Positions 18,973-49,523 of a stretch of 64,000 nucleotides of DNA are shown in pieces. A program made the translations under genes and the position numbers. The stretch lies in the NCBI RefSeq assembly GCF_024171735.1, contig NZ_JAMTCH010000004.1:372001-436000 (forward strand). The letters are read 5' to 3'. The notes below the pieces were generated by a model. It saw only the letters and a list, made by a program, of their open reading frames with translations. It was not told the origin of the DNA and made no database searches. Each line of letters begins with the position of its first letter. Position 1 is the first letter of the stretch. This stretch comes from Prauserella alba (GTDB taxonomy: Bacteria > Actinomycetota > Actinomycetes > Mycobacteriales > Pseudonocardiaceae).

Positions 18973-18988
18973 CTGTCCGGACGGACAG
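18973..18988. promoter_or_regulatory. C1-regulon palindrome, copy 1 (mscR / LuxR-kinase divergent promoter)
   Basis: CTGTCCGGACGGACAG is a two-fold symmetric 16-mer apart from its centre. On the minus strand it reads CTGTCCGTCCGGACAGGTT. It lies about 86 bases before mscR and at about -36 to -51 relative to the leaderless start of the regulator at 19024. Matching sites occur at 36853 and 49508. Confidence 0.6.
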
Positions 18989-19023
18989 CAATACCTCGAC
19001 CTCCGACGAGTTAGGCTGGGCAG

Positions 19024-20298
19024 ATGTCGAACGAACCGGACCCCGCCACCGCCCTGACCGGGCTGCGAGAGGTCCTCGACGGGCCGCTGCACGACATCGC
19101 CCGCCGCCTCTCCCACCTCATCGCGAGCCGGTGGCCGCACACCGCCCTGATCGTATTCACCCGCGAGTGCGCGGGCCGTCCGCGCAAGGTCGCCGGCGAC
19201 GTCGACATGCTCAACAAGGTCACCATCAGCGAGCTCGAACAGATCAAACAGGAACTCGACCCCGGCATTCCCGTCTGCTCGACGTTCGCGATCGCGGGTC
19301 AGCGACGGACGGTGTGGACGGTGCGCGACCCGTCGGACATGCTGCTCGTCCTGGTTCCCCGCTCCCCCGGCCACCCGCTGCCCCAGCCCGGCCTGCTCAC
19401 CGCGCTGTTCGGCATCGTCGCCACGTCGATCCGCCAGCAGGTGGCCCAGGCCAGCCCCGACTACCTCGCCGAGTCCCGCGCGGCCGCGCTCGAACGTGAA
19501 CGCACCATCACCGAACTGGCCACCGCGCACGAGTCCACGCTGGTCGGGCTGCTGACGACGTTGCGCTCGACCGAGCTGGACGACACCCGTGCGCGGGTGG
19601 CGGCGACGGACGCCGCATCGTCGGCCCTGGTCTCGCTGCGCACCGCGCAGCGATCCGAACAGGCACTGTCCAATGAGGCCACCTCGGCCGCGTTCACCGC
19701 GCTGCGCAACGAGATCCGGCAGATATTGCGGCACCACCAGGCGCCGATCGAGTTCGCCGCGCCGACCGGCACGGGCAGCAGAACTCTGCCCGGCGACATC
19801 GCGCACGCCGCCCGCGCGATGACCCGCACGGCGGTGCTGGCGCTCACGGCCGATCCCGAGTTGGCGCGGCTGCGCATCGCGTGGACCTGCGACGACGCGA
19901 CGCTGCTGGTCGACGTGCGAGATCAGAGCACGGGCAACCTCGACGCCGAGGGACTGCATCGGCAGCTCCAGGGCCGCGCGCGGACGCTCGGCGCCACGGT
20001 CGGCGTCGACGCCACACCGGGCTGGGGCAGCCGCGTCACGATCGAACTACCGCTCGACCCACCGGCCGACACCGGTGTGGAGACCCGGCTGACCGACCTC
20101 AACCGGCGGGAACGCGAGGTACTGGACCTGCTCGCGCAGGGCAAGCGCAACAAGGCGATCGCCGCGGACCTGGGCGTCACCGAGAGCACCGTCAAGTTCC
20201 ACGTCACGCGGGTGCTGCACAAACTCGACGTCAGCACCCGCGGCGAGGCGGCCGCGCTGGCCCTCACCGCGGGCGCCGACTCAGCGGTACGCGCGTAA
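19024..20298 (+). CDS. Fused kinase-like/LuxR-HTH transcriptional regulator
   Basis: In this 424-residue protein, residues 1-140 look like a GAF-type sensory region. About 150-230 is helical, where a HisKA_3 dimerisation helix would lie, but I see no clear phospho-acceptor motif. About 260-345 resembles an HATPase_c lobe ending in the G-W-G-S-R-V-T-I-E-L-P pattern. Residues 360-415 are a full LuxR HTH (LTDLNRREREVLDLLAQGKRNKAIAADLGVTESTVKFHVTRVL region). A sensor and DNA-binding output are thus fused in one chain without a receiver. It is divergent from mscR, so control of formaldehyde oxidation is likely. A TAGGCT -10 (19012-19017) lies 6 bases before the ATG, implying a leaderless transcript. 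Confidence 0.8.
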   Translation: MSNEPDPATALTGLREVLDGPLHDIARRLSHLIASRWPHTALIVFTRECAGRPRKVAGDVDMLNKVTISELEQIKQELDPGIPVCSTFAIAGQRRTVWTVRDPSDMLLVLVPRSPGHPLPQPGLLTALFGIVATSIRQQVAQASPDYLAESRAAALERERTITELATAHESTLVGLLTTLRSTELDDTRARVAATDAASSALVSLRTAQRSEQALSNEATSAAFTALRNEIRQILRHHQAPIEFAAPTGTGSRTLPGDIAHAARAMTRTAVLALTADPELARLRIAWTCDDATLLVDVRDQSTGNLDAEGLHRQLQGRARTLGATVGVDATPGWGSRVTIELPLDPPADTGVETRLTDLNRREREVLDLLAQGKRNKAIAADLGVTESTVKFHVTRVLHKLDVSTRGEAAALALTAGADSAVRA

Positions 20299-20476
20299 CG
20301 CCCGCGCACGGCGCTACGCCGGCCACGGTCGGTCAGCAGCGACACCGGTTCGCCACTCGGCGCCCCGAACGCGGCAACCAGCACGGAACCGTCGTGCATC
20401 CGCCCACGGTCACCGGCATCAGCATCGCCAGGAAGGCGCGCGGCCGGCACGCGGTCTTCCGACAGCCGAACGGGAG

Positions 20477-21367
20477 TCAGCCGGCCCGGCGGCCGCCCGA
20501 CGGTGGCCGGGGCAGGACGATCGGCGTGCCGGTGAGCGGGTCGTCGATGACGGCGCAGCTGAGCGAGAACACGGATTCGATCGTGCCGGGCTGCAGGACG
20601 TCGGCGGGCGGACCCTCGGCGGCGATGCGGCCGTCCTTGACCGCCACGAGGTGGTGGGCGTAGCGGCCCGCGAGGTTCAGGTCGTGCAGGACGAGCACGG
20701 TGGTGCGGCCGAGCGTGGCGTTCAGGTCGGTGAGCAGTTCGAGCAGGTCGACCTGGTGAGTCAGGTCGAGGTGGGCGGTGGGCTCGTCGAGCAGCATGAC
20801 GTCGGGGTCCTGGGCGAGTGCGAGCGCGAGCCATGCCCGTTGCCGCTGACCGCCGGACAGTTCGTCGACCGGCCGTTCGGCGAGGTCGGTGATGCCGGTG
20901 GCCGCCATCGCCGCCGTGATCGCGGTGTCGTCGGCGTCGGTGTGGTGGCGGAACCAGCGCTGGTGCGGGTGCCGCCCGCGGCCGACGAGGTCGGCGACGG
21001 TGATGCCGTCGGGTGCGAGGGGCTGCTGGGGAAGCAGACCGAGGCGCCGGGCGAGCGTTTTGGTGGCGAGCCGCGCGATGTCCTGCCCGTCGAGCAGGAC
21101 GGTTCCGCGGCGCGGGGTCATCAGCCGCGCCAGCCCGCGCAGCAGCGTCGACTTGCCGCTGCCGTTGGCGCCGACGATGACCGTGATCCGGCCGGGTGGG
21201 ACGGCGACGGAGACGTCCTGCACGACGGGCGCCGCGTCGTAGCCGAGGGTGAGCCCCTCGGCCGACAGTTCCGTGGCCGGCTGCGTCGTGGCCGGCTGTT
21301 CCGCCGGGCACGCGGTCGAGGTCGGGGGCGTTGTCGAGGTCGTGGTTGTGGTCGTGTCCGGGTTCAT
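20477..21367 (-). CDS. btuD: Cobalamin ABC transporter ATP-binding protein (BtuD-like)
   Basis: This 296-residue FecE/BtuD-type ATPase has a Walker A GANGSGKST at about 76-84, signature LSGGQRQR, Walker B VMLLDEPTAHLD and an H-loop His in VLVLHDLN. The first 30 residues are Thr/Pro-rich and disordered. Alone it could serve iron-siderophore uptake, but the operon is headed by a cobalamin riboswitch, so B12 import is preferred. ATG 21367 overlaps the stop of the upstream permease (ATGA). It is the last gene of the four-gene operon. Confidence 0.9.
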   Translation of the reverse strand: MNPDTTTTTTSTTPPTSTACPAEQPATTQPATELSAEGLTLGYDAAPVVQDVSVAVPPGRITVIVGANGSGKSTLLRGLARLMTPRRGTVLLDGQDIARLATKTLARRLGLLPQQPLAPDGITVADLVGRGRHPHQRWFRHHTDADDTAITAAMAATGITDLAERPVDELSGGQRQRAWLALALAQDPDVMLLDEPTAHLDLTHQVDLLELLTDLNATLGRTTVLVLHDLNLAGRYAHHLVAVKDGRIAAEGPPADVLQPGTIESVFSLSCAVIDDPLTGTPIVLPRPPSGGRRAG

Positions 21368-22413
21368 CCGGTGTGTCCGATCCGGTTGGCGCGAGCGAGC
21401 AGGTAGAGCAGGACGGGGGCGCCGAGGACTCCGGTCACGGCGCCGACGGGCAGTTCGGTGGGTGCGAACAGCAGCCGCGCGACGAGGTCGGCGCCGGTCA
21501 CGAGCAGTGCACCCGTCGCGGCCGCAGGGCCGAGCGCCGCCGACCTGCCCGCCAGCAGCCGCCGCGTGATCTGCGGGGCGACGAGGGCGATGAACCCGAT
21601 CGGCCCCGCCGCCGCAGTGGCCATGGCCGCGAGGGCCACTGCGGTGATGATCAGGGCGAGCCGGATCCGATGTGCCCCGCCGATGAGTGTCCTGGCCAGG
21701 TCGTCGCCGAGTTCGAGGACGCGGAGGTGCCTGCCCAGCACCAGCAGCACGGGAACGGCCGCCGCCAGGGTGGCGACGATGATCGTGACGTGCAGGGCGC
21801 CACGGTTGGCGAGGCTGCCGGTGAGCCACGACGCGGCGCTGAGCACCTGGTGATACTCGGCCCGCACGAGGAGGTAGGAGATCGCCGACGAGAGCATCGC
21901 CGCGATGCCGATGCCCACCAGCACGAGCCGGTAGCCGTTCAGCCCGCGATTGAGTGCGACGAGCACGATCGCCGCGGACGTCAGCATCGCCCCGGCCAGC
22001 GCCCCGAACACCAGCGACGCCCCGGCGCCGCCGACGACGGTCATCACGAGCAGTGCACCGAAGGACGCGCCTGCGTTCACCCCGATCACGTCGGGGCTCA
22101 CCAGCGGGTTCGCCGCGATCCGTTGCAGGATCGCGCCCGACAAGGCGAAGGCCGCGCCGACCCCGAGACCGGTCACCGTGCGGGGCAGCCGGTCCCGGAC
22201 CACCACGTCGTACTCGATGAGCGTGCCTCCCCCGCCGAGCACCCGCAGTGTGTCGGCGAGCCGCAGGTCGAACTCGCCGAGGCCGAGCGAGGCCACGGCG
22301 AGCGCCAGCGCAGCCAGCCACAGCGCCGACGTCAACAGCGCCGAGCGCCTGCTCAGCCGCAACGCGACGGTTCCGCGGGCGGCGTGCACGACGACGGTGT
22401 CCCGGGCCGTCAC
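21364..22413 (-). CDS. btuC: Cobalamin ABC transporter permease (BtuC/FecCD family)
   Basis: This 349-residue polytopic permease of the BtuC/FecCD fold has around ten hydrophobic segments. It shows the typical RLPRTVTGLGVGAAFALSGAILQRIAANPLVSPDVIGVNAGAS region and the cytoplasmic coupling stretch GPIGFIALVAPQITR. GTG 22413 overlaps the preceding permease stop (GTGA), and the gene's own stop overlaps the ATPase start. Having two different permease genes suggests a heterodimeric channel, as in FepDG, which is less common for B12 systems. Confidence 0.9.
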   Translation of the reverse strand: MTARDTVVVHAARGTVALRLSRRSALLTSALWLAALALAVASLGLGEFDLRLADTLRVLGGGGTLIEYDVVVRDRLPRTVTGLGVGAAFALSGAILQRIAANPLVSPDVIGVNAGASFGALLVMTVVGGAGASLVFGALAGAMLTSAAIVLVALNRGLNGYRLVLVGIGIAAMLSSAISYLLVRAEYHQVLSAASWLTGSLANRGALHVTIIVATLAAAVPVLLVLGRHLRVLELGDDLARTLIGGAHRIRLALIITAVALAAMATAAAGPIGFIALVAPQITRRLLAGRSAALGPAAATGALLVTGADLVARLLFAPTELPVGAVTGVLGAPVLLYLLARANRIGHTG

Positions 22414-23558
22414 AGCTGCGCCACCTTCCGGCGGCGCACCAGGTAGAGGAACAGCGGCCCGCCCGCGAGCCCGGTCACGATGCCCACCTGCAGTTGCTCG
22501 GGCTGCACCAGCAACCGGCCCGCGACGTCGGCGAGGAGCAGCAGGGCCGGGCCCAGCAGAGCCGACAGCGGCATGATCCACCGGTAGTCGGGGCCGACCA
22601 GCAGGCGTGCGATGTGCGGAACCGCCAGGCCGACGAACGCGATGGGCCCGGCGATCACGGTCGCCGCACCGGCGAGGAGCAGCACCGATACCGCCGCGAG
22701 CACGCGGACCGCCACCAAGCGTGTCCCCAGGCTGCGCGCCATGTCCTCGCCCAGCGCGATCGTGTTGAGACTGCCACCGACCGCCAGCGCCAGCACGAGG
22801 CCGATCGCCAGGACCGGTCCGACGGCTGTGGCCTCCGCCCCGGCACGGGTGAGCGAGCCGACGGCCCAGAACCGGTACTCGTCCAGCGTGGCCGCGTCGA
22901 GCAGGGTGATGATGGTGGTCATCGAGCCGACCATGGCGGTGAGCGCCGCCCCTGCCAGCGCCAGTTTGACCGGCGTCGCTCCGCCCCGGCCGAGCGATCC
23001 GAGGACGTAGACGAAAAGGGCGGCGGCTCCGGCCCCGGCGAACGCGAACCACAGGTGGCCGCCGGCCGCGGTCACCCCCAGTGCGATCGCGGTCACCACG
23101 GCCAACGACGCGCCCGCGTTGATGCCCAGGATTCCCGGGCCCGCCAACGGGTTGCGGGTGAGGCCCTGCATCACCGCACCGGCTACGCCCAGTGCACTAC
23201 CGGCCAGCAGGCCCGAGACGGTCCGCGGGATTCGCACGTGCCACACGACCGTCTCGACGTCCCCGTGTCCCGGCGAGACGAGCGCCGACAACACGCCCGC
23301 CGGCGAAACCGGATAGTTTCCGACCACAAGGGACAGTGCGCACGCAGCGGCGAGCAGTGCCACCGTCGACACCGCCCAGGCCACTGTGGACCAACGCCCG
23401 GAGCTGCGCCCCTGCACCCGTGTTGCCTGCGGTGCCGGCGCTGCTTGTGGTTCCGGCGCCGTCCCGGGCACGCCACCGCTCGGCGACGCGTCCCCGGCGG
23501 CGGGCGACGGGCTGTCTACCGGCCGCGCCGCCTCGGTCGCGGAGCTCCCCTTGTTCAC
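22410..23558 (-). CDS. btuC: Cobalamin ABC transporter permease, second subunit (BtuC/FecCD family)
   Basis: This 382-residue FecCD-type permease has a 50-residue Ala/Pro-rich cytoplasmic N terminus before the first membrane segment. Conserved blocks include RIPRTVSGLLAGSALGVAGAVMQGLTRNPLAGPGILGINAGASL and GPIAFVGLAVPHIAR. GTG 23558 lies 10 bases after the binding-protein stop. It pairs with the next permease gene to form the transmembrane pore. Confidence 0.9.
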   Translation of the reverse strand: MNKGSSATEAARPVDSPSPAAGDASPSGGVPGTAPEPQAAPAPQATRVQGRSSGRWSTVAWAVSTVALLAAACALSLVVGNYPVSPAGVLSALVSPGHGDVETVVWHVRIPRTVSGLLAGSALGVAGAVMQGLTRNPLAGPGILGINAGASLAVVTAIALGVTAAGGHLWFAFAGAGAAALFVYVLGSLGRGGATPVKLALAGAALTAMVGSMTTIITLLDAATLDEYRFWAVGSLTRAGAEATAVGPVLAIGLVLALAVGGSLNTIALGEDMARSLGTRLVAVRVLAAVSVLLLAGAATVIAGPIAFVGLAVPHIARLLVGPDYRWIMPLSALLGPALLLLADVAGRLLVQPEQLQVGIVTGLAGGPLFLYLVRRRKVAQL

Positions 23559-23568
23559 CGGGTTTCCC

Positions 23569-24696
23569 TCAGTCGACGAGAGCGGGGTGCAGCACGGACG
23601 CCACCAGTTCGATGCTGTGGGCGGCGCGGACTCCGGCGCTGCGGTCGGCGAACAGGAACGGGTGCACCGCCCTGTCCTGCACGGCGGTGACGCCGGAGAG
23701 GGCCGGGTCGCGCAGGATGGCGTCGACCTCGGGGCGGGCGTCCTGTTCGGTCATGCTCGCGTCGCAGCACGCGTCGGTGAGGATGACGTCGGGGTCACGC
23801 TTGACCAGTTCCTCGGCGCCGACGTCGATGTTGCGCTTCCTAGACAGGTCGGCGAAGGCGTTCGTGCCGCCTGCCCGTTCGATGATGTGCGAGCCGAAGT
23901 CGATGCCGCTCGCGATGCTGTAGCTGCCGTCCTCGTTCGGGGACACGATGGCGACCGACGGCCGCTCGGCGTCGGCGACCTGCTTCTCGACGGCGGCGAT
24001 CCGCTGCCGCATGTCGGCGATCACGGCGTCCGCCTTGTCCTCGACGCCGAACAGGGCGCCGAGGTCGCGCAGGTCGCGGTAGATGTTCTCGACCTTCACC
24101 GTGGCCGGGTCGATCGACTGGTCGGTGAGGCCGTCCTCGCTGGGGCAGAGCGGCGAGAGGATCCAGCTCTGCACGCCGACCCCCCGCAGACTGGCACGTG
24201 TGCCGACCGAGCTGTCCGCGCTCTGTTCCGCGAAGAATCCGTTGAAACCCGACAGCACGAAGTCCGGTTTCTTCTGCAACAGCGCTTCTCTGCTGGGAAG
24301 ACTGGGAACGTAGTCCACATCGGCCTGACGGTCGGCGTACTCCGGCAGCACCTTCGCGTCCAGGAACGCCGTGCCCACGATCCGGTCGCTCACACCGAGG
24401 GCGTGGGCCAGTTCGATGGCGGGTTGGTAGGCGGCGTAGATGCGCTGCGGCGGATCGGCCACGGAGACGTCGATGCCGCAGTTGGTCCTGCTGATCGCAC
24501 CCCCCTCGGCCGAGGCGGAGTCCGGTGGTGGCGGCGCGCAGGCAGTCGCGGCGACCAGGACCGCGGCGAACAGGGAAACGATCGCGCCAGGGTTACGCCT
24601 CCGGCGCAGTACAGGATGGCGTCTCCGGCGCAGGGTGATTGTGCGCCTCCGGCGCAGAGTGAACGAATCGCGCCTTCGGCGCAGCGGCAATGACAT
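23569..24696 (-). CDS. btuF: Cobalamin-binding lipoprotein (BtuF-like)
   Basis: This 375-residue periplasmic-binding-type lipoprotein has a hydrophobic stretch ending in VAATAC around residue 55, a usable though non-ideal lipobox. The TroA/BtuF fold follows (PQRIYAAYQPAIELAHALGVSDRIVGTAF...PDVILTDACCDAS). The positively charged n-region is unusual: four repeats of a Leu-Arg-Arg-Arg-Arg unit are encoded by a tandem array of GC palindromes (24596-24685). I chose ATG 24696, because a longer frame would run into the riboswitch aptamer (24760-24916). Ligand assignment as B12 rests on that riboswitch. Confidence 0.87.
   Translation of the reverse strand: MSLPLRRRRDSFTLRRRRTITLRRRRHPVLRRRRNPGAIVSLFAAVLVAATACAPPPPDSASAEGGAISRTNCGIDVSVADPPQRIYAAYQPAIELAHALGVSDRIVGTAFLDAKVLPEYADRQADVDYVPSLPSREALLQKKPDFVLSGFNGFFAEQSADSSVGTRASLRGVGVQSWILSPLCPSEDGLTDQSIDPATVKVENIYRDLRDLGALFGVEDKADAVIADMRQRIAAVEKQVADAERPSVAIVSPNEDGSYSIASGIDFGSHIIERAGGTNAFADLSRKRNIDVGAEELVKRDPDVILTDACCDASMTEQDARPEVDAILRDPALSGVTAVQDRAVHPFLFADRSAGVRAAHSIELVASVLHPALVD
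24596..24685. repeat. Tandem GC-palindrome repeats inside btuF signal region
   Basis: Four copies of a palindromic core of the form GCGCCTCCGGCGCAG (starting near 24596, 24619, 24643 and 24670) are spaced 24-27 bases apart. On the coding strand each gives CTGCGCCGGAGGCGC, that is Leu-Arg-Arg-Arg-Arg. A related palindrome occurs at 35278-35300. Confidence 0.75.
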
Positions 24697-24739
24697 CGTC
24701 AGCCCGCCCCTCCAGGTCCTCGTGGATCGGGTCATCGGT

Positions 24740-24756: not shown

Positions 24757-24759
24757 GGT

Positions 24760-36566: not shown

Positions 36567-36851
36567 GGGCACGGGTCTCCCCTCTTCCGCGGGCAGCGGA
36601 CACGACGTCACCTGGCAGGGTAGGCAGCCACCCACCGGCCCTCCGCACGCGGGGCGCCGTCGAGGCCGTAACCGTCCTGTGACCAGCCGATCCGGGCGCG
36701 GGCCATCGAAGATCCGGGGCGCGGGCCGTCGAAACAGCACCTGCGGACGCGCAACGACAATGTCATCCGTGTCTTCACCGGCAACGTCCTCGCGTTCGCC
36801 ATCCGAAGGCAGCGCGGCGCACCCGCATTGCTGACAAGCCTCCTGCGACCC

Positions 36852-36869
36852 CCTGTCCGATCGGACAGG
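36852..36869. promoter_or_regulatory. C1-regulon palindrome, copy 2 (ercA-like/kinase/regulator promoter)
   Basis: CCTGTCCGATCGGACAGG is a perfect 18-bp palindrome about 100 bases before the GTG of the ercA-like gene. The 401-bp gap (36567-36967) between mscS and this operon holds no gene. Confidence 0.65.
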
Positions 36870-36967
36870 TACCCGCTACCGCAAACGGAGGGTGTGCCTG
36901 CCGTCCGACCAGCACTAGCCTGAGAACAGTCCAGCACCGCGGCTGGAAGATGAGGAGGCGTTTCCGC

Positions 36968-38317
36968 GTGCTTCATCCGACCCGGGCCGCGCCGGAACTG
37001 TCCGACGACGTCGGGCCCCGCGCCCGGCTACCGCGACTGCCGGCCCCGCCGCCCATCGAACCGGACGACCGGAGCGCCGAAGACCGGGGCGCCGAAGATC
37101 GGGGCGTCGAAGATCGGGGCGTCGAGCTGGCAGGCCCCGGCACTGCGCCCGCATACCCCGACCGGTCCACGGGGCTGGCGAAGTTCCACGTGCCCGAGAT
37201 CGTGTTCGGCCCGCACGCGCTGGCCGAACTCGGCCACTGTGCGCTGCGCGTCGGCGCGCGCAGGCCGTTCCTGGTCACCGACCCCGGCATCGTGGCGGCA
37301 GGCTGGGCCGCCGAGGCCGTCGACCACCTCCGCGGCGCCGGGCTGCAGCCCGTGGTGTGGTCGGAGGTGACGCCCAACCCCAAGGACGGCGAGATCGCCG
37401 CCGCCTACGAGCACTACCTCGACAGCGGCGCCGACGTCATCCTCGCCGTCGGCGGCGGCTCCTGCATCGACGCGGCCAAGGGCGTGGCGATCCTGTCCTC
37501 CAACGGGGGGACGATCCTCGGCTACGCCGGAGTCGACAAGGTGGTGCAGCCGATCCCGCCGCTGGTCATGGCGCCGTCGACGTCGGGAACGGGCGCCGAC
37601 GTGTCCCAGTTCGCCGTCATCACCGACACCGAGCGGCACATCAAGATCACGATCATCAGCCGGACGCTCGTGCCCGAGATCTCGGTCATCGACCCGCGAC
37701 TGCTCACGACCATGCCCGAGGAGCTCAACGCGGCCACCGGACTCGACGCACTCACCCACGCCGTCGAGGCCTACGTCTCGCGGGCGCACAACCGCCTCAC
37801 CGACCACCACGCGCTGCACGCCGCTCACCTGATCACCGGCAACCTGCGCGACACGACGCTCCAACCGCGGCGCGCCGCCCCCCGGATCGGGATGGCTCAG
37901 GGCGCCCTCGAAGCAGGCATGGCGTTCACCAACGCCATCCTCGGCATCACACACGCCATGAGTCACCAGGTCGGCGGGCTGCTCGACGCCCCGCACGGCG
38001 TGCTCAACGGCGTCCTGCTGCCCCACGCGATCCGGTTCAACGCCGCCGAGGACCCACACCGCTACGTGCCCCTCGCCGCGGCCGTCGGCATCGACGTCGA
38101 AGGCAGGCCCGCCGACGAGGTGGCCGACGGGCTCGCCTCGTTCATCCGCACGCTGGCCGACGACGTCGGCGTGCCGAAAGGCCTGTCCGACCTGGGCGTC
38201 AGCGAGGCCGACCTGCCGACCCTCGCCCGCACCACCCTCGCCGACGCCTGCCTCGCCACCAACCCGCGGGAGGTCGACATCGCCGACGTGTTCGCCCTGT
38301 TCCGGCAGGCCCTCTGA
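36968..38317 (+). CDS. ErcA-like iron-containing alcohol dehydrogenase
   Basis: This 449-residue group III Fe-ADH has a cofactor loop VGGGSCIDAAKG (about 162-173). The metal site is formed by the D-x3-H in TGLDALTHAVEAYVS and the later His of ITHAMSHQVGGLLDAPHGVLNGV. Its IVAAGWAAE, TPNPKDGE, GYAGVDKV and TSGTGADVSQF blocks recall ErcA, the Fe-ADH with a regulatory role in Pseudomonas ethanol oxidation. Like ercA it is next to a sensor kinase and regulator. The N-terminal 60 residues are an extra Pro/Asp-rich extension with a 5-residue GAEDR/GVEDR tandem repeat. GAGGAGG supports GTG 36968. Confidence 0.85.
   Translation: MLHPTRAAPELSDDVGPRARLPRLPAPPPIEPDDRSAEDRGAEDRGVEDRGVELAGPGTAPAYPDRSTGLAKFHVPEIVFGPHALAELGHCALRVGARRPFLVTDPGIVAAGWAAEAVDHLRGAGLQPVVWSEVTPNPKDGEIAAAYEHYLDSGADVILAVGGGSCIDAAKGVAILSSNGGTILGYAGVDKVVQPIPPLVMAPSTSGTGADVSQFAVITDTERHIKITIISRTLVPEISVIDPRLLTTMPEELNAATGLDALTHAVEAYVSRAHNRLTDHHALHAAHLITGNLRDTTLQPRRAAPRIGMAQGALEAGMAFTNAILGITHAMSHQVGGLLDAPHGVLNGVLLPHAIRFNAAEDPHRYVPLAAAVGIDVEGRPADEVADGLASFIRTLADDVGVPKGLSDLGVSEADLPTLARTTLADACLATNPREVDIADVFALFRQAL
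37070..37128 (+). repeat. 15-bp tandem repeat in ercA-like coding region
   Basis: Four near-identical units of the form GGCGCCGAAGATCGG encode Ala/Val-Glu-Asp-Arg-Gly repeats in the N-terminal extension. Confidence 0.7.
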
Positions 38318-38358
38318 CCGGGGGACGCCGTGACGCTCATGAACGCTGTGAGGAACCG

Positions 38359-39756
38359 ATGACCTCGTCCGCGCACTCCAGTTCCAGGGACAGCCGCTCC
38401 AGGGACAGCGGCGCTGTGCGCTCCGGCTTCGGCCGCGACGAGGCCGACCTGGGCGCACTCACCGGCGTGCGCTCGGGCAAACGCTCCTTCTACCCCGAGT
38501 ACGTGCGCTCGGCCGAACGGCTGGAGAACGCGGTGCGCGCCCTCGACAGCATCTCGCGGGCACTGGTCCGCACGGCCGAAGGTCCACGCGAACTCGTCGA
38601 GGCCGTCGCGGCCGCGGCGGCGGACCACCTGCGCGCGGAATGGCTGCTGGTCGCGGTCGCCGACGGGGCGCTGCAGGCCGCGCGGCCACGGTTCCTCGTG
38701 CTCCACGGCGGCGAACTGATCGACGACGAACGGTCCCTGCCCGCCGAGGCCCTCCCCCACCTGCACGTGCTGCGGGCACGGCCGTGGGAGGCCGAGGACG
38801 AGCCCGGCGACGGCATCGTGCGCGTGTCGATGACCCTGGACGGCGAGCCGATGGGCGGCATCGCGGGGCTGCCAGGCAAGGCGGTCGAGGTCGCCGACAC
38901 CGACCTGGCCATCCTGCGGGTGCTCGCCAACCAGGCGGCGGTCGCGCTGCACAACTCGTTCCTGCTGCACGCGGCGACCACGCTGCGCGGCAAGACCGAA
39001 CGGCTCTCCGAGGCGGCCGAACAGCAGGCCAAGGAGCTCGCCGACACGCAGCAGCGCCTCATCGAGTCGATGCAGCGGCAAGCGCTGGACGACGAACGGC
39101 ACCGCATCGCCCGTGAACTGCACGACAGCGTCACCCAGGACGTGCTGTCGGCGGGCATGACCGTGGAGGTGTGCCGGGCGGAACTGGCCGCCGGCGGCGA
39201 TCACGACGCACTGGTCGATCAGCTCAGCGCGGCCAAGGACCTCACGGGGCACGCGGTCGAGCGGCTGCGCGCCGCGATCTACGCGCTGCACAACGGTGCA
39301 GAGGAACCTCCCGGATCGCTGCCCGTGCTGCTGGAACGGCTCTCGTCGGTGCACCTTCCCAGCGACCTGAAGGTGCAGGTCCGCATCGTGGGCAGCCCCG
39401 TGCCGCTGCCCGGCGAGGTCGAACACTCACTGCTGCGGCTCGCGGGCGAGGCGCTCTTCAACACCGTCATGCACACGACCGCCGACGAAGCGCTGGTGCG
39501 GCTGCAGTACCTGCCGGAGCGGATCGTGCTGTCGATCTCCGACAACGGCGAGGGCGACCCGGCCCAGCTGCGCAGGACACTCAAGCTCACCGCGGCGACC
39601 GACCTGGCGGGCGTGCACCGCGGCCTGGCGAACATGCAGGGCAGAACCCGCGAACTGGGCGGCACGATGTCGATCCGGCGTTCCGAGCTCGGCGGGATCA
39701 TGCTGGTACTCGATATTCCGCTCCCCCTGCGGAGGCACGGAAAGGCGGCATCATGA
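38359..39756 (+). CDS. GAF-type sensor histidine kinase (LiaS/NarX class)
   Basis: In this 465-residue kinase, residues 1-45 are Ser/Arg-rich and 55-205 form a GAF domain (LVRTAEGPRELVEAVAAAAADHL...VLANQAAVALHNSF). A coiled linker is followed by HisKA_3 with phospho-acceptor H255 in DDERHRIARELHDSVTQ. The C-terminal HATPase carries the ISDNGEGD and GLANMQGRTRELGG blocks. It is cytoplasmic, since no membrane helix is seen. GAGGAA lies 5 bases before ATG 38359; the gene sits 41 bases after the ercA-like gene and overlaps the response regulator (ATGA). It likely senses alcohol/aldehyde status, possibly through ErcA. Confidence 0.88.
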   Translation: MTSSAHSSSRDSRSRDSGAVRSGFGRDEADLGALTGVRSGKRSFYPEYVRSAERLENAVRALDSISRALVRTAEGPRELVEAVAAAAADHLRAEWLLVAVADGALQAARPRFLVLHGGELIDDERSLPAEALPHLHVLRARPWEAEDEPGDGIVRVSMTLDGEPMGGIAGLPGKAVEVADTDLAILRVLANQAAVALHNSFLLHAATTLRGKTERLSEAAEQQAKELADTQQRLIESMQRQALDDERHRIARELHDSVTQDVLSAGMTVEVCRAELAAGGDHDALVDQLSAAKDLTGHAVERLRAAIYALHNGAEEPPGSLPVLLERLSSVHLPSDLKVQVRIVGSPVPLPGEVEHSLLRLAGEALFNTVMHTTADEALVRLQYLPERIVLSISDNGEGDPAQLRRTLKLTAATDLAGVHRGLANMQGRTRELGGTMSIRRSELGGIMLVLDIPLPLRRHGKAAS

Positions 39757-40496
39757 ACACCCCACCGTCCAGGGCGATGCACCCGGACCCTGCACCGGCA
39801 CAGCGCCCGAACCGCGACGCCGAACGGCTACCGGACACCCGCAAGCAGGACACGGGCAGGCAGGACCGGCTGAGCATCGTGCTCGTCGACGACCACGCCA
39901 TCGTCCGCCAGGGTCTGCGATCCATTTTGGACCGCGAGGAGGACATGCGGGTGGTCGGTGAGGCCGCGACGGCCGCCGAGGCGCGTACGGCGCTCGAACA
40001 GTTGCGCCCCGCCATCGTGCTGCTCGACCTCAAACTCGGCACCGGCTCCGACACCGAGGGCCTCGACCTCTGCTCGGAGATCACCCGGCGCTACCCGGAG
40101 GTCGGCGTGCTCGTGCTGACCACGTTCCTCGACGACGCCTACGTGCTGGAGGCCGTGCACCGCGGCGCGAAGGGGTACGTCATCAAGGACGTCGACACCA
40201 GCGAACTCGTCTCGTCGATCCGGACGGTCGCGCGTGACGAGAGCGCGTTCGACTCACGGTCGGCGTCGGTGATGGCCCGTTCGCTCCGCACGACACCGGA
40301 GGAACCCGCGCTCACCGAACGCGAACACCGGGTGCTCGAACTGCTCGCGTCCGGACTGAGCAACCGCATCGTCGGCACGACGCTGTTCATCTCCGAGACC
40401 ACGGTCAAGTTCCACGTCCGCAACATCATGCGCAAACTCGGCGCCTCCACCCGCGCCGAAGCGGTCTACGAGGCCAGCAAGATGGGGCTCATCTGA
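39753..40496 (+). CDS. LuxR/NarL-type response regulator
   Basis: In this 247-residue response regulator a 38-residue flexible N-terminal extension precedes the receiver domain. The receiver has acidic pair D46/D47 (VLVDDHAIVRQGL), phosphorylation site D92 (VLLDLKLG) and K-switch VIKDVD. The LuxR HTH is at about 185-240 (LTEREHRVLELLASGLSNRIVGTTLFISETTVKFHVRNIMRKLGASTRAEAV). It is co-translated with the kinase. It is one candidate for binding the CTGTCCG-N2-CGGACAG palindrome that precedes this operon. Confidence 0.9.
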   Translation: MNTPPSRAMHPDPAPAQRPNRDAERLPDTRKQDTGRQDRLSIVLVDDHAIVRQGLRSILDREEDMRVVGEAATAAEARTALEQLRPAIVLLDLKLGTGSDTEGLDLCSEITRRYPEVGVLVLTTFLDDAYVLEAVHRGAKGYVIKDVDTSELVSSIRTVARDESAFDSRSASVMARSLRTTPEEPALTEREHRVLELLASGLSNRIVGTTLFISETTVKFHVRNIMRKLGASTRAEAVYEASKMGLI

Positions 40497-42424: not shown

Positions 42425-42437
42425 GATTTCCCCCTCG

Positions 42438-44164: not shown

Positions 44165-44266
44165 GCCCCAATGTCTCACACGCCTGCCCGGTCACCGGCG
44201 AACACAGCAGCAGCACGCCTCCCTGTCACACGCACTCGACGTCCGGCAGACGCACCCTCAGAGCCC

Positions 44267-45268
44267 TCACGCGTCGGGCGCGGTTTCGACGACGAGCCAG
44301 CCGCCGTGGTGTTCGGCCACGGTGAACGGCAAGCCCGTGCGAGTTCCCAGGCGGGCCAGTTCCGCACCGTCGAACCGGCGTACGTGGCCGAAACAAGTGT
44401 CCGGTTCGTCCTCGAACGGCACGGCGACGACCACCCGGCGGGCGGCGAGCCGCACCGCTTCGGCGAGTACGGCGGCACCGGCGCCGGCGTCGAGGTGCTC
44501 CAGCAGGTGCAACACGGTCACGGTGTCGGCCGCACCGGCTGCCAACGGCACCGAGGCCGCATCGCAGGCCAGCGTCGACAACGGGACGCCCTCGCCGCGG
44601 GCGATCCGCGACAGCAGTCGCATGCTTCCCGGCACGACGTCGGACGCCGTCACGGAGTAGCCCGGCTCGGCCGCGAGCAGCAGCGGGAAGAAACCGAAAC
44701 ACGAGCCGAGGTCGAGCACCCGGCCCGGCGGCACGAGCGCCCGCGCGTACTCGTACACCGGCTCCAGCCCGCCGGTGGGACCGCGGTCCGATCCGTGCAG
44801 CCGCGCGAGCGTGTTGCGGTAGAAGGTCCGCCACGCCGCGAGCCCTCCGGGCACGGTAGAGCGGACGAGTCCGACGAACACCCGCTCGAACAGCTCCTGC
44901 TCGGCCACGAACCCCGGCCGGAACAACTCGTCGGCGACCAGCTCCGTCAACCCGTCCTCGATGTCACCGTGGCCGAGCCGGTGACTCACGACGAGCCGCG
45001 CATCGCCCCCGTGCAGCCGAAAATGCGTCGTGCGGGCGGAAACCGGCCCGAGCTGGCTCCCCAGCCACCCACCGCGGTGCACCACCCGGACCCGCTCGTC
45101 CCGGTACTCACCCGGCGGGCACGGCGCCAGCGGGTCCAGCGGAGCGGGGCCGGCAGCCGGAGCAGCGCGGTCCGGCGGAGCGGCGTCATCGGGCGGCGCC
45201 GGCTGGTCCCACGAGGCAGCGTGGCCGAGCGGAGCCGGCTCGGCACGGGCATGCAACGGGCTCGTCAT
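44267..45268 (-). CDS. SAM methyltransferase, mycofactocin-oligosaccharide methyltransferase MftM candidate
   Basis: This 333-residue class I methyltransferase has a Pro/Ala-rich N terminus (about 1-50), then a helical substrate domain and a SAM-binding fold with motif I VLDLGSCFGFFPLLLAA (about 182-198). DVVPGSM and TVLHLLEHLDAGAG follow. The placement next to VWA, MoxR and methanol dehydrogenase genes parallels the M. smegmatis locus holding MSMEG_6237 (MftM) and MSMEG_6242 (methanol dehydrogenase), as I recall it. MftM methylates a glucose in the mycofactocin oligosaccharide. Its start overlaps the VWA gene stop (ATGA). Confidence 0.75.
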   Translation of the reverse strand: MTSPLHARAEPAPLGHAASWDQPAPPDDAAPPDRAAPAAGPAPLDPLAPCPPGEYRDERVRVVHRGGWLGSQLGPVSARTTHFRLHGGDARLVVSHRLGHGDIEDGLTELVADELFRPGFVAEQELFERVFVGLVRSTVPGGLAAWRTFYRNTLARLHGSDRGPTGGLEPVYEYARALVPPGRVLDLGSCFGFFPLLLAAEPGYSVTASDVVPGSMRLLSRIARGEGVPLSTLACDAASVPLAAGAADTVTVLHLLEHLDAGAGAAVLAEAVRLAARRVVVAVPFEDEPDTCFGHVRRFDGAELARLGTRTGLPFTVAEHHGGWLVVETAPDA

Positions 45269-46758
45269 CGGACGGCCGCAGGCAGGTCGCGTGCGGCGTT
45301 CTCCAGTCCGGCGACGTCGCGCACCACGCGAACCCGGCTGCAGTGCTCGGCGTAGTCCGGCAGATCGCACGCACCGAGGCCCCACGAATGGCGCGGTTCC
45401 GGGGTCAGCCACAGCACGTCCCTGGCTTTGCGCGCGATCTCCTCGAACGCGACGAGATTCGGATCGTTGCCGTTGCCCCGGCCGTCCCCCAGCACCAGCA
45501 CGGTGGTCCTGCGGTTCACCGCGGTGCCGTGCTCGTCGAGGAACGCGCCGAACACGGAGCCGTAATCGGAGTTGGCGTCGACGTCGATGACATCGCCCCG
45601 GAACAGCGTCTCCAGGGCCTGGTCGATCCGCTGCTCGGCGAACAGACCGGTGATCTCCGCGATCTCGGCGACGAACGCGTACGAGCGGACCGACGAGAAC
45701 AGATCGTGCAGCCCGTACAGCAGGTGCAGCGTGAAACCGGCGGTGGCGCGCACGGAAAGGCTCACGTCGGCGAGCACGACGAGCCGCGGCTTGTCCTCCC
45801 GCTGGTCGACGGTGACAGGCCGGAACGGCACGCCGTCGTAGCGCAGGTTCCGGCGCATCGTGCGGGCCGGATCGATGCGGCCACGCGACGCGGGCCGTTT
45901 GCGGTGCGTCACGGCGCCGCGCAGCGAGGCGACAATGGTGCGCAGCGCGTCTTCCAGCTCGTCGTGGCCCCGCTCGGATCCCCGGTCGGACCGGGAGTTC
46001 TCCGCGACGGACTGCTCCAGCAGCATCAGGTGTTCCAGGTGACGGCGCAGCGCCTCGGGCAGCCGGGCGAGGGCCCGCTCCCCCATACCGGACCGCAGGG
46101 CCGCCGCATCGGTCTCGTCGCCTTCGTCGTCCTCGCCGGGGCCGCGCTCCAGCCAGTTGAGCAGCGCGTCCTGTTCGGCCAGGCTGAGGGTGGCCTCCAC
46201 CGGGTTTCCCTGGGCCTTACCGAGTTCGCCGGGCGCGACGCCGTGGCTGCGGTCGATCTCCAGCAGCACCTCGTTCGAACCGTCCATGGTGGACACGTCC
46301 TGCTGCGAGAACACGAGCTCGTCGTCGGTCTCGTTGTCGAGCACGATCGGGTTGAGCTCGGGGTGCGGGCTGTAGCGCTCGATGAGGTCGTCCTCGTCGA
46401 ACAGGTCGCCGAGGTCGGCGTCGGGGCTTTCCATGTCGGCCCGCGGCGGGCGCTGGCCCGCCTCCTCGGCGATCGTGAAGTCGTCGAGCAGTGTGGTCGT
46501 GCCGGTGTTACCCGGGCCGTCGCCGCGTTCGTCGCCGAAGCGGACGTGGGCGAAGAAGGCGTCGAAGAGTTCGTCGAACGTCGCGTTGTCGCGGTGGTCC
46601 TTGACCAGCGCGCAGCGCAGCCCCTCGCGGAACAGTTCGCGGTCACCGATCATGGCCGGATCGGCCACGCAGCGGGCCGCGTCGACGATCTCGACCGACG
46701 AGATCCGCAGCCCCGCACTGCGCAGCAGTCGCACGAACCGATGCAGTCCGGTCAGCAT
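45265..46758 (-). CDS. VWA-domain protein (CoxE-like)
   Basis: This 497-residue protein has a helical N-terminal half with an acidic middle (about 100-270) and a C-terminal von Willebrand A domain. The domain has a MIDAS motif DVSLS (D-x-S-x-S, about 337-341), followed by the conserved D in VLVLGDGRGNGNDPN and the late WLTPEPRHSWGLGACDLPDY. VWA proteins of this type work with MoxR ATPases to remodel or insert metals into target enzymes, as in CoxDE and NorQD. Here the target may be the neighbouring Fe-type methanol dehydrogenase, inferred from gene order. Confidence 0.88.
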   Translation of the reverse strand: MLTGLHRFVRLLRSAGLRISSVEIVDAARCVADPAMIGDRELFREGLRCALVKDHRDNATFDELFDAFFAHVRFGDERGDGPGNTGTTTLLDDFTIAEEAGQRPPRADMESPDADLGDLFDEDDLIERYSPHPELNPIVLDNETDDELVFSQQDVSTMDGSNEVLLEIDRSHGVAPGELGKAQGNPVEATLSLAEQDALLNWLERGPGEDDEGDETDAAALRSGMGERALARLPEALRRHLEHLMLLEQSVAENSRSDRGSERGHDELEDALRTIVASLRGAVTHRKRPASRGRIDPARTMRRNLRYDGVPFRPVTVDQREDKPRLVVLADVSLSVRATAGFTLHLLYGLHDLFSSVRSYAFVAEIAEITGLFAEQRIDQALETLFRGDVIDVDANSDYGSVFGAFLDEHGTAVNRRTTVLVLGDGRGNGNDPNLVAFEEIARKARDVLWLTPEPRHSWGLGACDLPDYAEHCSRVRVVRDVAGLENAARDLPAAVR

Positions 46759-46767
46759 GGCCGCGGC

Positions 46768-47997
46768 CTACCGCTTGCCGCGACCGTGGTTGGCCGCGAA
46801 GGAACGTTCACCCTGGCTGCTGCTCACCGACCGTTGCGGCGCCGGGGTGCCCGTGTTCTCCCCGTAGTAGCCCGCGCCGTGTCTGCCCGGCGTGTCCCGC
46901 GCCGCGCGCAACGCGGCACCCGCCCCCTCGTCGTCCGGATCGACTCCGGGGACGGGCGCGCGCCGCTCCCCCTCGACCGGAGCCCGCCGATCCTCACCGG
47001 CCGGACCCGGTTCGCCCTGCTCCCGCAGCTCACCCGAATCCCGCAGTCCACTCGAATCCCGCAGCTCACCCGAATCCCGCAGCACCCGCATGGCGCGCTC
47101 GACGTCGCGCTCGTACTTGGCCACGACCGAGATCGTGTCCGTCAGCAGTTCGGTGTCCGGTTCGGACGCCCCGAGCACCGCGAGCGTCCGTGCCCAGTCG
47201 ATCGCCTCGGAGATGCCGGGCGGCTTGCGCATCCCTTGTTCGCGCAGCTCGCGTACGACGTCGACGAGGTGGGTCGCCACGGTTTCCGGCAGGCCGGTGC
47301 TCTTCGACCGGATGATGTCCAGCTCCCGCTCCGCCGACGGATAATCCAGCGACAGGTGCAGGCAGCGCCGTTTCAGCGCCGCCGAAAGGTCGCGGGTATT
47401 GTTGGAGGTCAGCACCACGTACGGCATGTGCTCCGCGGCGAACGTCCCGAGCTCGGGAACCGACACCTGATACTCGGCGAGCAGCTCCAGCAGCACCGCT
47501 TCGAGCGCCTCGTCGGCCCGGTCCACCTCGTCGATCAGCAGTACCACGGGCTCGGGGGAACGGACGGCACGCAACAGCGGCCGCTCCGCGAGGAACCGCT
47601 CGGAGAAGAACACGTTGTCGTGCTGGCCGATCGCCTCGACCGCCGACGGCAGATCGTCGGCGTCCGCGACCACCTGCCCGATCTTCTCCCGCAGGATCTG
47701 CGTGTACAGCATCTGCTTGCCGTAATCCCACTCGTAGAGGGCCTTCGTCTCGTCCTGGCCCTCGTAGCACTGGAGACGCAGCAGCCGCCTGCCCGTCGCG
47801 GCGGCGAGCGCCTTGGCGAGCTCGGTCTTGCCGACCCCGGCGGGCCCCTCCAGCAGCAGCGGTTTGCCCAGCTGGTCCTGGAGGTAGACGGTGGTCGCGA
47901 GTGGACGGTCGGCGAGGTAACCGACGTCGGACAGCAACGAGGTGACCTCGCCGACGGAGGAGAAGGAATGGGGGCGGTGACCGTTTCGTGAGCTCAC
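46768..47997 (-). CDS. MoxR-family AAA+ ATPase
   Basis: In this 409-residue protein, residues 10-290 form a MoxR AAA+ module with Walker A GPAGVGKTE (about 46-54), Walker B VVLLIDEVDRAD, sensor 1 TSNNTRDLS and arginine-finger region ALKRRCLHL. The C-terminal 110 residues are disordered and contain a hexapeptide tandem repeat (LRDSGE/LRDSSG, four units; 18-bp repeats near 47020-47090). It partners the VWA gene 9 bases downstream. GTG 47997 is preferred; GTG 48009 is the alternative. A 23-bp hairpin separates it from the methanol dehydrogenase gene. Confidence 0.88.
   Translation of the reverse strand: MSSRNGHRPHSFSSVGEVTSLLSDVGYLADRPLATTVYLQDQLGKPLLLEGPAGVGKTELAKALAAATGRRLLRLQCYEGQDETKALYEWDYGKQMLYTQILREKIGQVVADADDLPSAVEAIGQHDNVFFSERFLAERPLLRAVRSPEPVVLLIDEVDRADEALEAVLLELLAEYQVSVPELGTFAAEHMPYVVLTSNNTRDLSAALKRRCLHLSLDYPSAERELDIIRSKSTGLPETVATHLVDVVRELREQGMRKPPGISEAIDWARTLAVLGASEPDTELLTDTISVVAKYERDVERAMRVLRDSGELRDSSGLRDSGELREQGEPGPAGEDRRAPVEGERRAPVPGVDPDDEGAGAALRAARDTPGRHGAGYYGENTGTPAPQRSVSSSQGERSFAANHGRGKR
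47020..47092 (-). repeat. 18-bp tandem repeat in moxR coding region
   Basis: About four units resembling CAGCTCACCCGAATCCCG (plus strand) encode the LRDSGE-type hexapeptide repeat in the disordered tail of the MoxR protein. Confidence 0.65.
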
Positions 47998-48021
47998 GCG
48001 GGCAAACACCTTTCGGCCTGG

Positions 48022-48070
48022 GCCATGGGTGTTCCGCGGTGCGGCGCCCGCACCGCGGAACACCCATGGC
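48022..48070 (-). terminator. 23-bp perfect hairpin between methanol dehydrogenase and moxR genes
   Basis: Arms 48022-48044 and 48048-48070 are perfectly complementary with a 3-base loop. The hairpin starts 15 bases past the dehydrogenase stop and ends 24 bases before the moxR start. There is no U tract. It could be a partial terminator or a 3' mRNA stabiliser that keeps dehydrogenase mRNA abundant relative to moxR-VWA-mftM. Confidence 0.75.
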
Positions 48071-48085
48071 TGAACTACAAGCGGC

Positions 48086-49378
48086 TCAGGAGATGAGGTC
48101 GTCGAGGTCGCCGTTGAAGCAGTGCTCGACCACCGGCCGCACGGTCTCGAACGTCGTCTCCTTCGGATTGCCCGGCGTGCAGGAGTCACCGAGGATGTGC
48201 TTGGACACCCGGTCCACGTCGTTCGCGTCGCCCTTGATGGTCGAGGCCTTCTTGTAGAAGTCCGTGGGACCGGTGCCGAGGCGGTTCTTCGGGTGGGTGT
48301 CCTGGGTGATGTCGGTGAACCGCTCGGTGATGCCCACGTCGCGCAGCAGCCGGATCGCCGCCGCCACGGCCGCATCGGCCGCCTTCACGTCGTTCATCCC
48401 GGTGGTGTCCACGCCGAGGGCCCCGGCCAGCCGCGCGTAGCGCTTGTACGCCACGGGCAGGTTCCACGCCCACACGCGCGGCAGTGCGATCGCGTTGTTG
48501 AGGCCGTGGTGGGTGTCGTAGAACGCGCTGACCGCGTGGGAGACCGAGTGGATGACGCCGAGCCCACCGGAGTTGAAGGCCTGCCCCGCGGTGTACTGGG
48601 CGTACATCATGCCTTCGCGGGCGGGCAGGTTGTCGGCGTGCCACGTCGCCGTACGCAGGTGCTCACCGACCAGCTCGGCCGAGTACAGCGCGCTGCCGAG
48701 CGACGGCGTGAAGTCCAACCTGGACACGTACGGCTCGGAGGCGTGCGCCAGCACGTCGAAGCCGCACTGCGCGGTGAAGTGCGAAGGGCACTCGTAGTAC
48801 AGCACCGGGTCGTCGACGGCCAGCGTGACGACCGAGTGGTCGTCGAACGCGACGTACTTGTGCGGGTTCGCGGGGTCCGTCGTGGTGTCGGTGATGACGT
48901 ACGCCCACGAGGTCTCCGAGCCCGTACCCGCCGTGGTCGACACGGCGATGTGCGGCGGGTTCTTCGGGTTCTCCGACTTGTTGAAGCCTTCGAACTCGTT
49001 GACGTTGCGGCCGTCGTGCGCCACCGAGATCCGCGCGCCCTTGCACGCGTCGTGGGAGGAACCGCCGCCGATCGAGATGAAGCCGTCACAACCGTCCTGC
49101 TGGTAGATCGCGACGGAGTCCATGACGTTGTAGTCCTTGGGGTTCGACTCCACCTTGTCGTACACGGACGGTTCGAGCCCGTGGTACTTGAGCGACTCGA
49201 CGAGCTTGTTCACGATGTCGGTGCCGCGCAGTCCGGAGGTCATCACCAGCGGCCTGCGCATCCCGATCTTCAGCGCTTCCGGGCCGATCATCTCGTGCGA
49301 GCCGGGGCCCAGCAGCGCTCGCGGAATCGGGTGGAATTCCTTGAGGGGAAACGGCTTGAGAAGTTCGTCGACCTGCAT
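48086..49378 (-). CDS. mno: NDMA-dependent (mycofactocin-linked) methanol dehydrogenase
   Basis: This 430-residue group III Fe-type alcohol dehydrogenase closely resembles Mno/Mdo enzymes of Amycolatopsis and mycobacteria. These keep NAD(P) tightly bound and use mycofactocin (or artificial NDMA) as electron acceptor. Features are the MQVDELLKPFPLKEFHPIPR start, dinucleotide loop GGGSSHDACKGARI (about 101-114), TAGTGSETSWAYVITD, and metal ligands in GFDVLAHASEPYVS and HSVSHAVSAFYDTHHGLNNA. It oxidises methanol or other short alcohols to aldehydes. AAAGGG precedes ATG 49378. The mycofactocin biosynthesis genes are not in this window. Confidence 0.93.
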   Translation of the reverse strand: MQVDELLKPFPLKEFHPIPRALLGPGSHEMIGPEALKIGMRRPLVMTSGLRGTDIVNKLVESLKYHGLEPSVYDKVESNPKDYNVMDSVAIYQQDGCDGFISIGGGSSHDACKGARISVAHDGRNVNEFEGFNKSENPKNPPHIAVSTTAGTGSETSWAYVITDTTTDPANPHKYVAFDDHSVVTLAVDDPVLYYECPSHFTAQCGFDVLAHASEPYVSRLDFTPSLGSALYSAELVGEHLRTATWHADNLPAREGMMYAQYTAGQAFNSGGLGVIHSVSHAVSAFYDTHHGLNNAIALPRVWAWNLPVAYKRYARLAGALGVDTTGMNDVKAADAAVAAAIRLLRDVGITERFTDITQDTHPKNRLGTGPTDFYKKASTIKGDANDVDRVSKHILGDSCTPGNPKETTFETVRPVVEHCFNGDLDDLIS

Positions 49379-49507
49379 TGGCTGACCCTTTCCGTCGTGA
49401 CACGTACCACGCTGAAGCTATGGCCGTGGTCACTCCGGCCCAAGGGGTCCGAGGCCGAAACCGCTCACCGGCGGAGGCAGAACGCCCCCGTGGGACGGGA
49501 ACCGACC

Positions 49508-49523
49508 CCGTCCGTTCGGACAG
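49508..49523. promoter_or_regulatory. C1-regulon palindrome, copy 3 (upstream of methanol dehydrogenase)
   Basis: CCGTCCGTTCGGACAG, extended by GTTCCCGC, matches the copies at 18973 and 36853 with one outer mismatch. It lies about 130 bases before the dehydrogenase ATG. Confidence 0.6.

What the first reader, a model, noticed from the sequence alone, without database searches (positions are those of the whole stretch)
18973..49523. One palindrome marks three distant C1/alcohol-oxidation promoters
The sequence C-Y-GTCCG-NN-CGGACAG-GTW occurs at 18973-18988 (mscR / fused LuxR regulator), 36852-36869 (ercA-like, kinase, regulator operon; a perfect 18-mer) and 49508-49523 (methanol dehydrogenase, one mismatch). 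All are in promoter gaps of genes in one inferred pathway: methanol to formaldehyde to mycothiol adduct. The two LuxR-type HTH proteins at 19024 and 39753 are the natural binders. This points to an operator of a coordinated methanol/formaldehyde regulon that I do not know as described. Caution: the inner core GTCCG-NN-CGGAC also appears at 1471-1482, between convergent gene ends, and my scan was by eye.
Basis: partly seen in the sequence, partly recalled or inferred. Interest (0 to 1): 0.85.

Follow-up and report, generated by a model that had tools for sequence, protein, structure and literature searches.

The report
Methanol-regulator operator plus a lookalike
Two of the three marked DNA palindromes look like the conserved landing site of a bacterial alcohol- and methanol-responsive switch, while the third, in front of a formaldehyde-detoxifying gene, looks more like the landing site of a related neighbouring regulator.

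Summary
The palindrome is real: CTGTCCGNNCGGACAG has two exact copies in the 5.6-Mb genome (mscR/luxR gap, ercA-like promoter); the mno site has one mismatch. A matrix built from relatives ranks exactly these three first in the window (32.2, 24.8, 16.0; next 7.9).
The ercA and mno sites are best read as operators of the MnoS/MnoR (NCBIfam MadS/MadR) two-component system. Boxes like ACCTG[T/C]CCGATCGG[A/G]CAGGT precede ercA-mnoSR and mno across actinobacteria (at least 14 of 18 bases in 48 of 64 and 47 of 53 promoters). MnoR binding to a palindrome upstream of M. smegmatis mno is published (PMC11303327), so "undescribed" does not hold for mno.
The mscR/luxR site differs. It lacks the outer GT. 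Diverged versions occupy the same place in 14 other luxR-mscR genomes, 21-22 bases from a mscR -10 in 16 of 17, also where no MnoR ortholog was found (6 of 17). All 19 fetched mscR promoters without that luxR lack it. It is most likely the operator of the LuxR protein at 19024-20298; added use by MnoR in Prauserella is possible, not shown. A fourth genomic MnoR-type box precedes a SCO4226-like gene.

The parts
36851..36870 (.). MnoR box of the ercA-like/mnoS/mnoR operon, CCCTGTCCGATCGGACAGGT
   Evidence: matrix score 32.2, first in the window; 1 mismatch to the 20-mer; boxes upstream of ercA in relatives
36916..36921 (+). predicted -10 TAGCCT of the ercA-like operon, 45 bases after the box
   Evidence: TANNNT at offsets 42-45 summed 38 over 49 loci; prediction only
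36950..38317 (+). ErcA-like iron-containing alcohol dehydrogenase (in-frame GTG at 36968 behind GAGGAG may be the true start, by eye)
   Evidence: NCBIfam NF041833 456.9 bits, below its cut-off of 550; Fe-ADH domains
38350..39756 (+). MnoS/MadS sensor histidine kinase (start not determined; inside frame 37357-39756)
   Evidence: NF047786 583.2 bits, cut-off 500; HisKA_3, HATPase
39753..40496 (+). MnoR/MadR NarL-type response regulator, proposed binder
   Evidence: NF047785 340 bits, cut-off 300; solved relatives DevR, VraR, NarL
49506..49525 (.). MnoR box upstream of mno, CCCCGTCCGTTCGGACAGGT
   Evidence: matrix score 24.8; boxes upstream of mno in relatives
49415..49420 (-). predicted -10 TAGCTT of mno, 85 bases after the box
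   Evidence: TANNNT at offsets 83-85 summed 25 over 48 loci; prediction only
48086..49378 (-). mno, NDMA-dependent methanol dehydrogenase
   Evidence: TIGR04266 664.5 bits, cut-off 625
44267..48375 (-). MadB-like ATPase, MadC-like VWA protein and MftM downstream of mno, the likely rest of its operon
   Evidence: MadB 375.7 of 475 and MadC 299.7 of 600, both below cut-off; MftM 338.6, cut-off 200; same order in relatives
18971..18990 (.). mscR/luxR operator, ACCTGTCCGGACGGACAGCA
   Evidence: matrix score 16.0; element present at the same place in 17 luxR-mscR genomes
18993..19012 (.). second, degenerate element 22 bp further towards luxR, ACCTCGACCTCCGACGAGTT
   Evidence: related element at +22 (16 genomes) or +21 (one) in the 17 gaps
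18944..18949 (-). predicted -10 TACCGT of mscR
   Evidence: TANNNT 21-22 bases from the element in 16 of 17 genomes; prediction only
19012..19017 (+). predicted -10 TAGGCT of luxR, giving a leaderless start near 19024
   Evidence: at 21-22 bases in 7 of 17, at 17 in 3; prediction only
17801..18886 (-). mscR, S-(hydroxymethyl)mycothiol dehydrogenase
   Evidence: TIGR03451 688.9 bits, cut-off 512.9
19024..20298 (+). LuxR-type protein with a kinase-like ATPase remnant; proposed binder of the mscR/luxR element
   Evidence: GerE domain; similarity to the MnoS ATPase end, 27% over 111 columns, E 3e-5; divergent from mscR in 17 of 17 ortholog loci

Best explanation
The sites at 36851-36870 and 49506-49525 are operators of the response regulator MnoR/MadR (39753-40496). 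When MnoS senses an alcohol it would phosphorylate MnoR; a MnoR dimer would bind the 9-2-9 palindrome with its NarL-type HTH and activate the ercA-like/mnoS/mnoR operon (autoregulation) and the mno operon. The site at 18971-18990, with a weaker one 22 bp further at 18993-19012, is a similar operator used mainly by the neighbouring LuxR protein (19024-20298). From there it would activate mscR (element centres -43.5 and -65.5 from the predicted mscR start) and, because the second element covers the luxR core promoter, probably restrain its own gene. The resemblance to the MnoR box follows from related recognition helices; in this clade the two specificities may overlap. Shown here: sequence, conservation, spacing, gene families. 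Inferred: binding, direction of control, signals.
For: Boxes of at least 14 of 18 bases upstream of ercA in 48 of 64 and of mno in 47 of 53 loci; random segments of the same loci 48 of 1280 and 45 of 1060, some hitting true sites. Matrix sites of at least 8: 127 within 520 bp upstream of ercA/mno, 31 elsewhere, in 64 loci. In 28 genomes 41 places at up to 2 mismatches against 5 control; in 35 genomes 317 against 117 at up to 3. Tandem spacings in phase at 10.5 bp; fixed -10 offsets. MnoR recognition helix TVKFHVRN in 55 of 64 loci, TVKFHVGN in 3, TAKFHVGN in 6. Published MnoR binding at M. smegmatis mno. For the mscR site.
Against: No binding data for this organism. 16 of 64 ercA and 6 of 53 mno promoters show no box of 14 or more, and the plasmid loci L139, L142, L203-L206 show none of 15 or more. 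The letters of the published motif could not be compared. The mscR site has the exact MnoR core, fits the luxR-type matrix only modestly (17.8 against 17.0-27.1 for its members) and is unlikely to arise from luxR-type columns by chance (5.8e-5 per site), which leaves room for MnoR there. Starts and -10s are predictions.
Confidence: 0.72

Rival explanations
1. One regulon: MnoR binds all three promoters, so methanol oxidation and formaldehyde disposal are switched on together.
For: Exact 7-2-7 core at mscR; third-best matrix score in the window. Within the Prauserella clade the four MnoR-positive genomes carry T at position 6 and the one MnoR-negative genome G, a base printed as 0.0 there in the MnoR matrix.
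Against: Outer GT missing; exact core in 3 of 17 luxR-mscR genomes; element kept in 6 of 17 genomes without a MnoR ortholog; 19 of 19 fetched mscR promoters without luxR lack a box. M. smegmatis reported to have no evident MnoR sites outside the mno operon (PMC11303327).
Confidence: 0.22
2. The palindrome is the operator of a TetR-type methanol regulator such as MdoR of Mycobacterium sp. JC1 (recalled from memory; no paper on it was found).
For: MdoR is recalled to bind inverted repeats near mdo; the window has a TetR-family gene at 16419-17102.
Against: The box travels with mnoSR and a MnoR palindrome is published in M. smegmatis; the TetR gene here is not adjacent to any of the sites. No MdoR sequence was compared.
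Confidence: 0.04
3. Chance palindromes or hairpins without a regulatory role.
For: At up to 3 mismatches the window holds no excess over shuffles.
Against: Two exact copies in the genome, both in promoter gaps; conservation, fixed -10 spacing and phasing.
Confidence: 0.02

Closest known systems
MnoSR two-component system and MnoR palindrome of Mycobacterium smegmatis (Dubey and Jain 2019, seen only through PMC11303327)
   Same: ADH-kinase-regulator genes beside mno; a palindrome upstream of mno (137 bp there; 127 bp between box and start codon here); regulator of the NarL type.
   Different: There the genes form one operon with one palindrome; here ercA-mnoSR and mno are separate units, each with its own box. 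Motif letters not compared.
NarL/DevR-type response-regulator operators
   Same: Inverted heptamers around a 2-bp centre (7-2-7, recalled for NarL); MnoR is related to solved DevR, VraR and NarL.
   Different: Different half-site, flanked by nearly invariant outer ACC/GGT bases.
MdoR (TetR family) of Mycobacterium sp. JC1, recalled
   Same: Regulates methanol oxidation through inverted repeats, as I recall.
   Different: Another protein family; not compared here.

Membership tests
MnoR/MadR operator (36851, 49506) | Palindrome upstream of mno or its operon, at a conserved place | tested here: met
MnoR/MadR operator (36851, 49506) | Same letters as the published M. smegmatis motif | not testable with these tools
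   2019 paper not held; no letters in the text searched; supplements not available
MnoR/MadR operator (36851, 49506) | Bound by MnoR | not testable with these tools
   needs a binding assay
MnoR/MadR operator (18971, mscR) | Outer ACC/GGT on both arms | tested here: not met
   right arm ends CAGCA
MnoR/MadR operator (18971, mscR) | Conserved at mscR promoters of MnoR-positive genomes | tested here: not met
   30 mscR loci from 28 genomes; score 15 or more in 3, all luxR-linked; 18 further mscR matches were not fetched
MadS/MadR two-component system | NCBIfam curated cut-offs | tested here: met
   583.2 against 500 and 340 against 300
ErcA | NCBIfam curated cut-off | tested here: not met
   456.9 against 550; called ErcA-like only
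MdoR operator | Bound by a TetR protein | not tested
   recalled family; no sequence compared

The most novel reading that the evidence does not exclude
In the Prauserella salsuginis clade one palindrome at -43.5 of mscR has become readable by two regulators with near-identical recognition cores, the alcohol-responsive MnoR and the local LuxR protein, so that formaldehyde disposal is tied to methanol oxidation through deliberate cross-talk at a shared operator.
Probability: 0.28. Interest if true: 0.6.

Novelty: new member of a known kind. Interest (0 to 1): 0.45.

Why it matters
It extends a single-site observation in M. smegmatis to a defined operator (consensus, -10 spacing, helical phasing) found upstream of alcohol-oxidation genes in many actinobacteria, and so predicts further regulon members (a SCO4226-like gene here; aldehyde dehydrogenase, acetate-CoA ligase, mftM and mftD promoters in some relatives). 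It also points to a candidate regulator of mycothiol-dependent formaldehyde dehydrogenase, for which my one literature search found no description.

Tried and rejected
Scores among the 11: 16, 16, 15, 14, 13 and six of 11-12; among the 19: 13 or less. Of the 48 mscR matches, 18 got no locus and were not read. Kept as a rival.

One-mismatch sites at C1:1034349 (L003) and C2:1000156 (L005): matrix 2.6 and 1.8, inside coding frames. The four 3-mismatch places: 3.5, 7.7, 3.9 and 9.0, three inside predicted frames.

mft cluster: mftC is on contig C1:286454; none of the 8 places is near it; its promoter was not read. An E. coli-type promoter scan of 36700-37000 found none.

Limits of the counts: one search used 64 ercA and 53 mno regions out of 83 loci (no hit, under 55% identity or under 150 bp upstream were dropped), and its controls come from the same loci. 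The matrix was trained on 81 of those sites, including close relatives of this genome but not the window. One search left out five spacings above 62 bp and does not correct for ancestry. One search filtered on TVKFHV, so helices were recounted (L078 is counted). MnoR absence rests on draft genomes (one of the six has a 42% relative). The -10 counts are sums over offsets.

Full report
OBSERVATION. The three sites exist as described. CTGTCCGNNCGGACAG has two exact copies in the 5.61-Mb genome, both in this window. At up to one mismatch there are six places against two for the reversed control. The 20-mer ACCTGTCCGNNCGGACAGGT gives eight places at up to 3 mismatches against one control; the best four are ercA (1), contig C4:294395 (1), mscR/luxR (2) and mno (2). 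The genome is a Prauserella-like one: its closest named MnoR relatives are P. salsuginis (94%) and P. halophila (91%).

GENES. NCBIfam puts mscR, MadS, MadR, mno and MftM over their curated cut-offs; the ErcA-like, MadB-like and MadC-like proteins are below theirs (456.9 of 550, 375.7 of 475, 299.7 of 600). MnoS/MnoR of M. smegmatis are the same kind of system by gene order. PMC11303327 (outline and abstract, passages, and the MnoR-binding section seen) reports that MnoR binds a palindrome present once in that genome, 137 bp upstream of msmeg_6242 (mno); that MnoSR controls mno positively and also MSMEG_6239; and that no evident MnoR sites explain expression changes outside the mno operon. The 2019 source paper is not held and the motif letters are not in the text searched.

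CONSERVATION OF THE MnoR BOX. A scan with MnoR gave 79 loci; many show ercA-mnoS-mnoR facing mftM-madC-madB-mno. The best 20-mer match upstream of ercA has 14 or more of 18 bases in 48 of 64 loci, and upstream of mno in 47 of 53. Random segments of the same loci reach this in 48 of 1280 and 45 of 1060, some by hitting true sites. A symmetric matrix from 81 sites gives ACCTG[T/C]CCGATCGG[A/G]CAGGT; positions 2, 3, 7, 8, 9 and their mirrors are at 98-100%. In the window it ranks the three reported sites first (32.2, 24.8, 16.0; next 7.9). Sites of at least 8 in 64 loci: 127 within 520 bp upstream of ercA or mno, 31 elsewhere, a few of which are ercA sites missed by the gene calls. In 28 genomes there are 41 places at up to 2 mismatches against 5 control; by contig and position I assign 29 to the ercA/mno clusters, 2 to mscR/luxR and 10 elsewhere. 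Among ten further Mycobacteriales stretches, the nine with mno have a place of 13 or more upstream of it, and six of ten have one of 14 or more upstream of ercA; two with the one-operon layout (L270, L271) have it only upstream of mno, 142 and 144 bp from the mno match, much as described for M. smegmatis. Plasmid copies L139, L142 and L203-L206 show no box of 15 or more.

GEOMETRY. A TANNNT follows the ercA box at 42-45 bases (summed count 38 over 49 loci) or 22 bases (8), and the mno box at 83-85 bases (25 over 48); in the window 45 and 85. Tandem boxes are spaced 20-23, 29-32, 40-44, 51-56 and 62 bp, in phase at 10.5 bp (27 spacings, R 0.684, p about 3e-6; five larger spacings left out, ancestry not corrected). 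This suits an activator working from one face of the helix. In the window each of the two promoters shows only one strong box.

THE mscR SITE. LuxR orthologs (60-100% identity) were found in 17 of 150 family genomes, each divergent from mscR. The 17 gaps share an element: exact MnoR core in three Prauserella genomes, near versions in two relatives, diverged and often weaker palindromes (3-6 of 10 pairs) such as ACCTGGTCGTCGGACCAGTA elsewhere. A second related element lies 22 bp (16 genomes) or 21 bp (one) further towards luxR; in one of them it is ACCTGGACTTCCGGACAGGT, 15 of 18 to the MnoR box on the matching strand. Six of the 17 genomes have no MnoR ortholog (five no match at 1e-40, one only a 42% relative). 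A TANNNT for mscR lies 21-22 bases from the first element in 16 of 17; one for luxR at 21-22 in 7 and at 17 in 3. The two element centres are thus -43.5 and -65.5 from the predicted mscR start, which matches the 22/44 offsets of tandem MnoR boxes at some ercA promoters, while the second element covers the luxR core promoter. All 19 fetched mscR loci without the luxR neighbour score 13 or less of 18. The site fits both matrices modestly: MnoR 16.0 (27 of 117 promoter best sites score that or lower), luxR-type 17.8 against 17.0-27.1 for its members. MnoR and LuxR are 46% identical over the HTH. MnoR reads TVKFHVRN in 55 of 64 loci (TVKFHVGN in 3, TAKFHVGN in 6); LuxR shares TVKFHV and varies after it (TR, TG, AG and others; 24 of 26 loci read). 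I therefore read the element as LuxR's, with possible cross-use by MnoR.

FOURTH SITE. C4:294395 (score 28.7) lies 112 bp upstream of a SCO4226-like (PF14026) gene; the P. salsuginis ortholog has a weaker box (19.0) 127 bp upstream. An ortholog was found in 3 of 25 genomes searched; the third shows no box.

NOVELTY. A MnoR palindrome at mno is known. I did not find in print (open-licence papers only) its spread across actinobacteria, its phasing, a separate box for ercA-mnoSR, or the mscR/luxR element with its regulator. Confidence was set slightly lower for the combined reading than for the MnoR part alone (about 0.9), because the mscR part is weaker.

Noticed in passing
18913-18940: A second inverted repeat, CAAGACATGCG-N6-CGCATGCCTTG, lies just downstream of the predicted mscR -10 and its GCAT cores recur in the aligned gaps; place of a repressor site or leader element.
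   Followed up: no
G000 C4:294395-294414 (L208:1501-1520): MnoR-type box upstream of a SCO4226-like gene, with a weaker one at the P. salsuginis ortholog.
   Followed up: partly
L068:5113, L075:5194, L070:5155 and similar in Saccharopolyspora: MnoR-type boxes (matrix about 14.5) beside an ExaC-type acetaldehyde dehydrogenase and a GAF-domain protein.
   Followed up: partly
L032:18912: Box (20.9) between an acetate-CoA ligase and a GAF-domain gene in Amycolatopsis sp. GM8.
   Followed up: partly
L043:11719, L044:9725, L073:4631: Boxes upstream of mftM where mno is absent from the locus (26.5; 16.9) and of mftD (15.3).
   Followed up: partly
55873-56502: A second response regulator with 37% identity to MnoR lies in the window.
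   Followed up: no
17178-17804: A metallo-beta-lactamase-fold gene overlaps the end of mscR by 4 bases, a likely operon partner.
   Followed up: no
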